Assembly: GCF_037975245.1 (NCBI RefSeq)
Contig: NC_092568.1
Span: 682,001-746,000, forward strand
DNA from: Apostichopus japonicus
Taxonomy: Eukaryota; Echinodermata; Holothuroidea; Aspidochirotida; Stichopodidae
Length of the DNA stretch: 64,000 nt
Direction of reading: 5' to 3'
The translations under genes were made by a program, and so were the position numbers. Position 1 is the stretch's first letter; each line of letters begins with the position of its first letter. Shown in pieces: positions 50,479-60,913 of this stretch. The notes under the pieces were generated by a model. That model was not told the origin of the DNA. It was given only the letters and a program-made list of their open reading frames with translations, and did no database searches.

Positions 50479-60913
<10,435 letters not shown>

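What the first reader, a model, noticed from the sequence alone, without database searches (positions are those of the whole stretch)
50479..50499. LC3C-type protein with a predicted N-myristoylation signal
The LC3 N-terminus reads MGSDSSK. Gly2, Ser6 and Lys7 fit the N-myristoyltransferase pattern MGxxxS(K). LC3 and GABARAP proteins are normally cytosolic until lipidated at the C-terminus. A second, N-terminal lipid would pre-anchor this one to membranes, giving a doubly lipidated ATG8. The start codon is well supported by AACATGG context and an upstream in-frame stop.
Basis: partly seen in the sequence, partly recalled or inferred. Interest (0 to 1): 0.72.

Follow-up and report, generated by a model that had tools for sequence, protein, structure and literature searches.

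The report
Sea cucumber LC3C with myristoylation-like start
A sea cucumber autophagy protein (LC3C) begins with a sequence that looks like a target for a fatty-acid tag, so it might be fastened to membranes at both ends, but no experiment or comparison with related species yet shows that it is.

Summary
Window 50479-50499 reads MGSDSSK and opens exon 1 of a four-exon gene model (50479-60913, 132 aa) for LC3C, an ATG8-family protein. The genome best fits Apostichopus japonicus. The start is well supported: it is the only in-frame ATG between an in-frame stop (50410-50412) and the conserved FKQRK in the same exon. The tail meets N-myristoyltransferase (NMT) motif rules: Gly2, Ser3, Ser6, Lys7, polar linker; Asp4 is less usual. 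The genome has an NMT and a neuronal-calcium-sensor-like exon reading MGKQNSK. In this window 2 of 1032 open ATGs match MGxxx[ST][KR], one being this gene. Human LC3C starts with Met-Pro-Pro-Pro; two of four paralogue starts here were read and lack Gly2. I found no report of an N-myristoylated ATG8, only a predicted site marked in a planarian ATG8 figure. The main gap: no animal sequence collection was available, so conservation of Gly2/Ser6 is untested. Verdict: plausible, testable, unproven.

The parts
50410..50412 (+). in-frame stop TAA upstream of the LC3C start
50479..50551 (+). LC3C exon 1, [24 protein letters not shown](S); NMT-type motif in its first 7 codons; donor GTAAGT
50479..50499 (+). 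MGSDSSK, candidate N-myristoylation signal
51119..51174 (+). LC3C exon 2 (S)[18 protein letters not shown]
59352..59458 (+). LC3C exon 3 [35 protein letters not shown](R)
60751..60913 (+). LC3C exon 4, ends ...YASQEMFGN stop (TGA 60911-60913); Gly131 is the expected ATG4 cleavage and PE conjugation site

Best explanation
This is the LC3C orthologue of a sea cucumber (best fit Apostichopus japonicus). Its N-terminal tail, which in human LC3C is a flexible tether bearing a polyproline motif, here starts with an NMT recognition sequence. Most likely (inferred) methionine aminopeptidase removes Met1 and NMT attaches myristate to Gly2 during translation, with Ser6 and Lys7 fitting the enzyme's peptide groove. 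The polar linker up to residue 17 would then let the myristate, helped by the basic [11 protein letters not shown] stretch, give weak reversible membrane binding. Separately, ATG4 would remove Asn132 and Gly131 would be joined to phosphatidylethanolamine as in other ATG8s. Shown here: gene model, family, motif, and presence of NMT and ATG4-type exons. Inferred: myristoylation, membrane pre-anchoring, and lipids at both ends.
For: Four-exon gene model with consistent splice sites and phases; ATG8 Pfam hit; closest to human LC3C; residues named for LC3C binding of NDP52 (K32, F33, L64, F69, PMC7615515) and E63, which differs from LC3A/B (PMC7564214), are all present at +5. Only one possible in-frame ATG in exon 1, good context. 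Motif: a consensus Gly-XXX-Ser is stated in review PMC11709147; NMT1 Asp471 salt-bridges substrate Lys7 (PMC7048800); the sea cucumber NMT has KFGIGDGNLQYYLYNW (that Asp471 lies in this GDG is recalled). A neuronal-calcium-sensor-like exon in the same genome reads MGKQNSK (62% identical over 37 residues to the NCS-1 query); mammalian relatives are N-myristoylated (recalled). An acidic residue at position 4 occurs in calcineurin B, MGNEAS (sequence; its myristoylation recalled). Human LC3C's N-terminus is mobile (PMC6775092), so access to NMT is plausible.
Against: Motif evidence only. Asp4 is not typical. No orthologue comparison was possible, and human LC3C starts with Met-Pro-Pro-Pro, so the signal is not universal in LC3C. 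The tail has no Cys for a second acyl anchor and net charge -1 over residues 2-18, which would make myristate binding weak. [quoted passage not shown] No RNA evidence for the 5' end; an AG at 50453 after a T-rich stretch could be an acceptor for an upstream exon.
Confidence: 0.58

Rival explanations
1. The tail is a variable, disordered LC3C tether that reads MGSDSSK by chance; after Met removal Gly2 stays free or is acetylated, and the protein behaves as an ordinary cytosolic ATG8 until PE conjugation.
For: The tail differs from the human Met-Pro-Pro-Pro sticky arm, so this stretch seems to evolve freely; MGxxx[ST][KR] also arises at one further ATG among 1032 in this window; Asp4 is unusual; conservation untested.
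Against: Ser3, Ser6, Lys7 and a polar linker coincide behind a well-supported start; the rate of MGxxx[ST][KR] at open ATGs is about 0.2% (2 of 1032), low for a single examined gene, though the gene was picked for its motif.
Confidence: 0.3
2. The first exon read here is not the whole story: an upstream coding exon or alternative acceptor gives another N-terminus.
For: No transcript data were available; an AG at 50453 follows a T-rich stretch and the frame is open from there to the ATG; [quoted passage not shown]
Against: The conserved FKQRK core is in the same exon as this ATG, and no other such motif was found in window 35001-59300 in the three + frames; AGs inside the exon lack a clear pyrimidine tract by inspection. 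An upstream exon could also be purely non-coding and leave the start unchanged.
Confidence: 0.07
3. Gly2 is processed mainly for another purpose: an N-terminal glycine degron or Ser phosphorylation of the SDSSK tail, with myristoylation absent or minor.
For: The tail is Ser/Asp rich; human LC3C has a phosphorylatable Ser18 at the end of its tether, here Thr23.
Against: No specific evidence; the Ser6-Lys7 pair is better explained by NMT.
Confidence: 0.05

Closest known systems
Human LC3C (MAP1LC3C; PDB 2NCN, 3VVW, 3WAM)
   Same: Aligned over query residues 11-131 with 186 bits; LIR-dock residues K32/F33/E63/L64/F69 (human numbers) present; long N-terminal tail; Gly followed by at least one more residue at the C-terminus.
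   Different: Tail starts MGSDSSK instead of Met-Pro-Pro-Pro-Gln (polyproline II sticky arm, PMC6775092 passages); a single residue (Asn) follows the Gly, whereas human LC3C has a longer C-terminal extension (recalled).
N-myristoylated neuronal calcium sensors (NCS-1, hippocalcin; recalled)
   Same: MGxxxSK start; an exon reading MGKQNSK exists in this genome.
   Different: EF-hand proteins, unrelated fold; Asp4 here where that exon has Gln4.
N-myristoylated autophagy regulators (AMPK beta, LAMTOR1, ARF1, VPS15, caspase-cut huntingtin)
   Same: N-myristoylation linked to autophagy (Table 1 of PMC11709147 as shown in passages).
   Different: None of the proteins in that table is an ATG8.

Membership tests
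ATG8 (Pfam PF02991) | Significant match to the family profile over the ubiquitin-like core | tested here: met
   137.8 bits against cut-off 27, residues 26-131, profile 1-104 of 104; the related Apg12 model also passes narrowly (24 against 22.8)
ATG8 (Pfam PF02991) | C-terminal Gly that ATG4 can expose | tested here: met
   ...QEMFG-N-stop, by sequence; ATG4-family (Peptidase_C54) exons on C2 and C10. Cleavage itself not testable.
LC3C subgroup | Closer to LC3C than to LC3A/B | tested here: met
   the five LC3C entries 182.1-186 bits; best entry named LC3B 161.4; a fusion with a cut-off name 162.8; best LC3A chimera 157.6. No tree was built.
LC3C subgroup | LIR-dock residues K32, F33, L64, F69 (NDP52 binding) and E63 (differs from LC3A/B) | tested here: met
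   K37, F38, L69, F74, E68 in this protein; residues named in PMC7615515 and PMC7564214
Human-type LC3C polyproline arm (a trait of the human protein, not a defining feature of the clade) | Met-Pro-Pro-Pro start forming polyproline II | tested here: not met
   MGSDSSK start against the human Pro2-Pro4
NMT substrate | N-terminal Gly after Met1 in a supported start | tested here: met
   no transcript evidence
NMT substrate | Ser at 6, basic residue at 7, polar linker, no bulky or charged residue at 3 | tested here: met
   [16 protein letters not shown]; rule sources, rest recalled. Asp4 is atypical but Glu4 occurs in calcineurin B.
NMT substrate | NMT enzyme present | tested here: met
   NMT and NMT_C exons on C18, GDGNLQYYLYNW kept
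NMT substrate | Motif conserved in orthologues | not testable with these tools
   no other animal genome held (no relatives); a viral-contig scan gave no relative
NMT substrate | Myristate actually attached | not testable with these tools
   needs labelling or mass spectrometry

The most novel reading that the evidence does not exclude
A natively doubly lipidated ATG8: sea cucumber LC3C carries myristate on Gly2 and phosphatidylethanolamine on Gly131. It would then sit on membranes before conjugation and stay there after ATG4 removes PE, or bridge two membranes with its two lipids; alternatively the myristate tucks into the LIR dock and is released by cargo binding, a myristoyl switch.
Probability: 0.4. 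Interest if true: 0.8.

Novelty: new variant of a known kind. Interest (0 to 1): 0.47.

Why it matters
ATG8 proteins are understood to be soluble until their C-terminus is joined to a lipid. A second, permanent N-terminal lipid would change when and where LC3C meets membranes and what ATG4 recycling can achieve. It would also show that the long LC3C tail, whose function in humans is described as poorly understood (PMC6775092, passages), can be used as a membrane anchor. One labelling experiment could settle whether the lipid is there.

Tried and rejected
Conservation: the window's own genome has no relatives in the genome tool and the other collections hold viruses, prokaryotes, phages, plasmids and E. 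coli; a scan of viral contigs found 12 pattern matches and no relative. I did not scan the prokaryote genome collection, where no echinoderm LC3C is expected.

Paralogues as a stand-in: I group the 11 ATG8 exon matches into five loci: this gene, C16 (LC3A/B-like, candidate exon 1 MKTFKERRTY), C11 (GABARAP-like, MKWQYKEEHPF) and two on C3 (GABARAPL2-like by recalled resemblance; first exons not found). Neither of the 2 starts read has Gly2; 2 of the 4 paralogue starts remain unread. A first hit for C16 exon 1 (YRKRKTFN) was dropped because no GT follows it.

Literature (search counts are of the held open-access library only): LC3C with N-myristoylation gave 5 papers; I looked into one (PMC6918785, passages), whose figure legend marks a predicted n-myristoylation site among planarian, yeast and human ATG8s, so a pattern hit in the family has been printed. 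Myristoylated with Atg8 and N-terminal glycine gave 10 papers, seen as a listing only. A wider search gave 61 papers, 12 listed; of these I read passages of PMC11709147. A phrase search for myristoylated LC3, Atg8 or GABARAP gave 1 paper: a table entry on the RavZ substrate, while the same paper's text speaks of a PE anchor. Searching six N-terminal strings, among them two recalled known substrates, gave no paper at all, so that search has no power. Shpilka 2011 is not held. PMC1885993 has no ATG8, LC3 or autophagy mention in its main text. Passages of an A. japonicus paper that blots AjLC3 in coelomocytes do not say which LC3 gene it is (PMC10199899, 12 of 15 places shown). One search was off target; two searches served to choose papers.

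No NMT predictor is on hand and I built none from recalled substrates. I did not run structure prediction: the protein is spliced, and the human LC3C paper already describes the mobile tail.

Full report
What is there. The reported bases, 50479-50499, read MGSDSSK. They open a gene model of four exons (50479-50551, 51119-51174, 59352-59458, 60751-60913) whose introns start with GT and end with AG and whose phases fit, giving 132 residues that end ...YASQEMFGN. Pfam calls the product ATG8 (137.8 bits; the related Apg12 model also passes narrowly). Among solved structures the best matches are human LC3C (186 bits), ahead of the best entry named LC3B (161.4; a fusion with a cut-off name has 162.8) and the best LC3A entry, a chimera (157.6) (60 of 112 sequences shown). 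Human K32, F33, L64 and F69, named for LC3C-selective NDP52 binding, and E63, which differs from LC3A/B (passages of PMC7615515 and PMC7564214), are all kept. So LC3C is right.

Which organism. The genome has 671,581,487 bases in 35 contigs. Its mitochondrial contig has 16,099 bases; of the two codes I tried on it, invertebrate and echinoderm, the echinoderm code gives COX1 with STNHKDIGT where the other gives STKHKDIGT (that Asn is the usual residue is recalled). A published Apostichopus japonicus assembly has 671.6 Mb, 34 scaffolds and a longest chromosome of 46.02 Mb (passages of PMC10344927), against 46,036,110 bases for C16 here. The figures are close, not identical. I take the species to be A. 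japonicus; this is an inference.

The start codon. An in-frame TAA lies at 50410-50412, no other in-frame ATG lies between it and 50479, and the context is AAC ATG G. The conserved LC3 element FKQRK is encoded in the same exon, and no second such stretch was found in window 35001-59300 on the + strand. Against this, an AG at 50453 follows a T-rich stretch and could be an acceptor, so an upstream exon, coding or not, cannot be excluded without RNA data.

The motif. NMT consensus is given as Gly-XXX-Ser (review PMC11709147, passages), and human NMT1 holds substrate Lys7 by Asp471 (PMC7048800, passages). This tail has Gly2, Ser3, Ser6, Lys7 and a polar stretch to residue 17. Asp4 is atypical, but calcineurin B (MGNEAS, sequence) has Glu4 and is myristoylated (recalled). 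By chance, 2 of 1032 ATGs followed by 16 open codons in the window read MGxxx[ST][KR], including this one. The tail has no Cys and a net charge of -1 over residues 2-18, followed by a +4 stretch [12 protein letters not shown], so any myristate anchor would lean on that basic stretch.

The machinery. NMT exons lie on C18 and keep KFGIGDGNLQYYLYNW. An exon on C9 found with human NCS-1 (62% identity over 37 residues) reads MGKQNSKLQP. ATG4-type protease exons lie on C2 and C10. So both modification systems appear to exist in this animal.

How unusual. The genome search gave 11 ATG8 exon matches, which I group into five loci: this LC3C, an LC3A/B-like gene on C16, a GABARAP-like gene on C11 and two GABARAPL2-like genes on C3. 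Of the other four, two first exons were read and neither has Gly2 (MKTFKERRTY as a candidate exon; MKWQYKEEHPF); two were not found. Human LC3C starts with Met-Pro-Pro-Pro (PMC6775092, passages). Hydra has an LC3C (review PMC7615515; research paper PMC6983715), so the gene is ancient, but whether the motif is ancient, echinoderm-wide or private to this species is open. I found no report of an N-myristoylated ATG8 in searches, most of whose papers I saw as listings only; the table of a lipidation review names other proteins. One planarian paper marks a predicted n-myristoylation site in a figure of ATG8 sequences (PMC6918785).

Mechanism and verdict. The most likely course is co-translational myristoylation of Gly2 by NMT, giving an LC3C with a weak, permanent membrane anchor at the end of a mobile tail and a second, regulated PE anchor at Gly131. 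Motif, start and enzymes are shown at sequence level; attachment and consequence are inferred. I put about 0.58 on myristoylation and 0.4 on a functionally doubly lipidated ATG8. The strongest reason for doubt is that conservation could not be tested.

Noticed in passing
window 52031-52249 (+) and 53369-53710 (-): The large second intron of the LC3C gene holds a weak reverse-transcriptase fragment (18.3 bits, below cut-off 29.6) and a weak THAP-domain fragment (20.6 bits, below cut-off 23.9), likely transposon remains.
   Followed up: partly
window 39001-39423 (+): An open frame with a TAF (TBP-associated factor) match, 30.6 bits over a cut-off of 21, upstream of LC3C.
   Followed up: no
G000 C3:4575137-4577958 (+) and C3:4616876-4617327 (-): Two diverged GABARAPL2-like genes (label by recalled resemblance) about 40 kb apart on opposite strands, a possible local duplication.
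   Followed up: partly
G000 C29:14745-16086 and 30842-31219: Contig C29 carries five COX1-like pieces beside the single long COX1 match on mitochondrial contig C35; perhaps a nuclear copy or an assembly product.
   Followed up: no
window 46546-47382 (+) and 24505-25686 (-): Long open frames (279 and 394 codons) without a Pfam match at E 0.01; they are 2 of the 10 stretches scanned.
   Followed up: no
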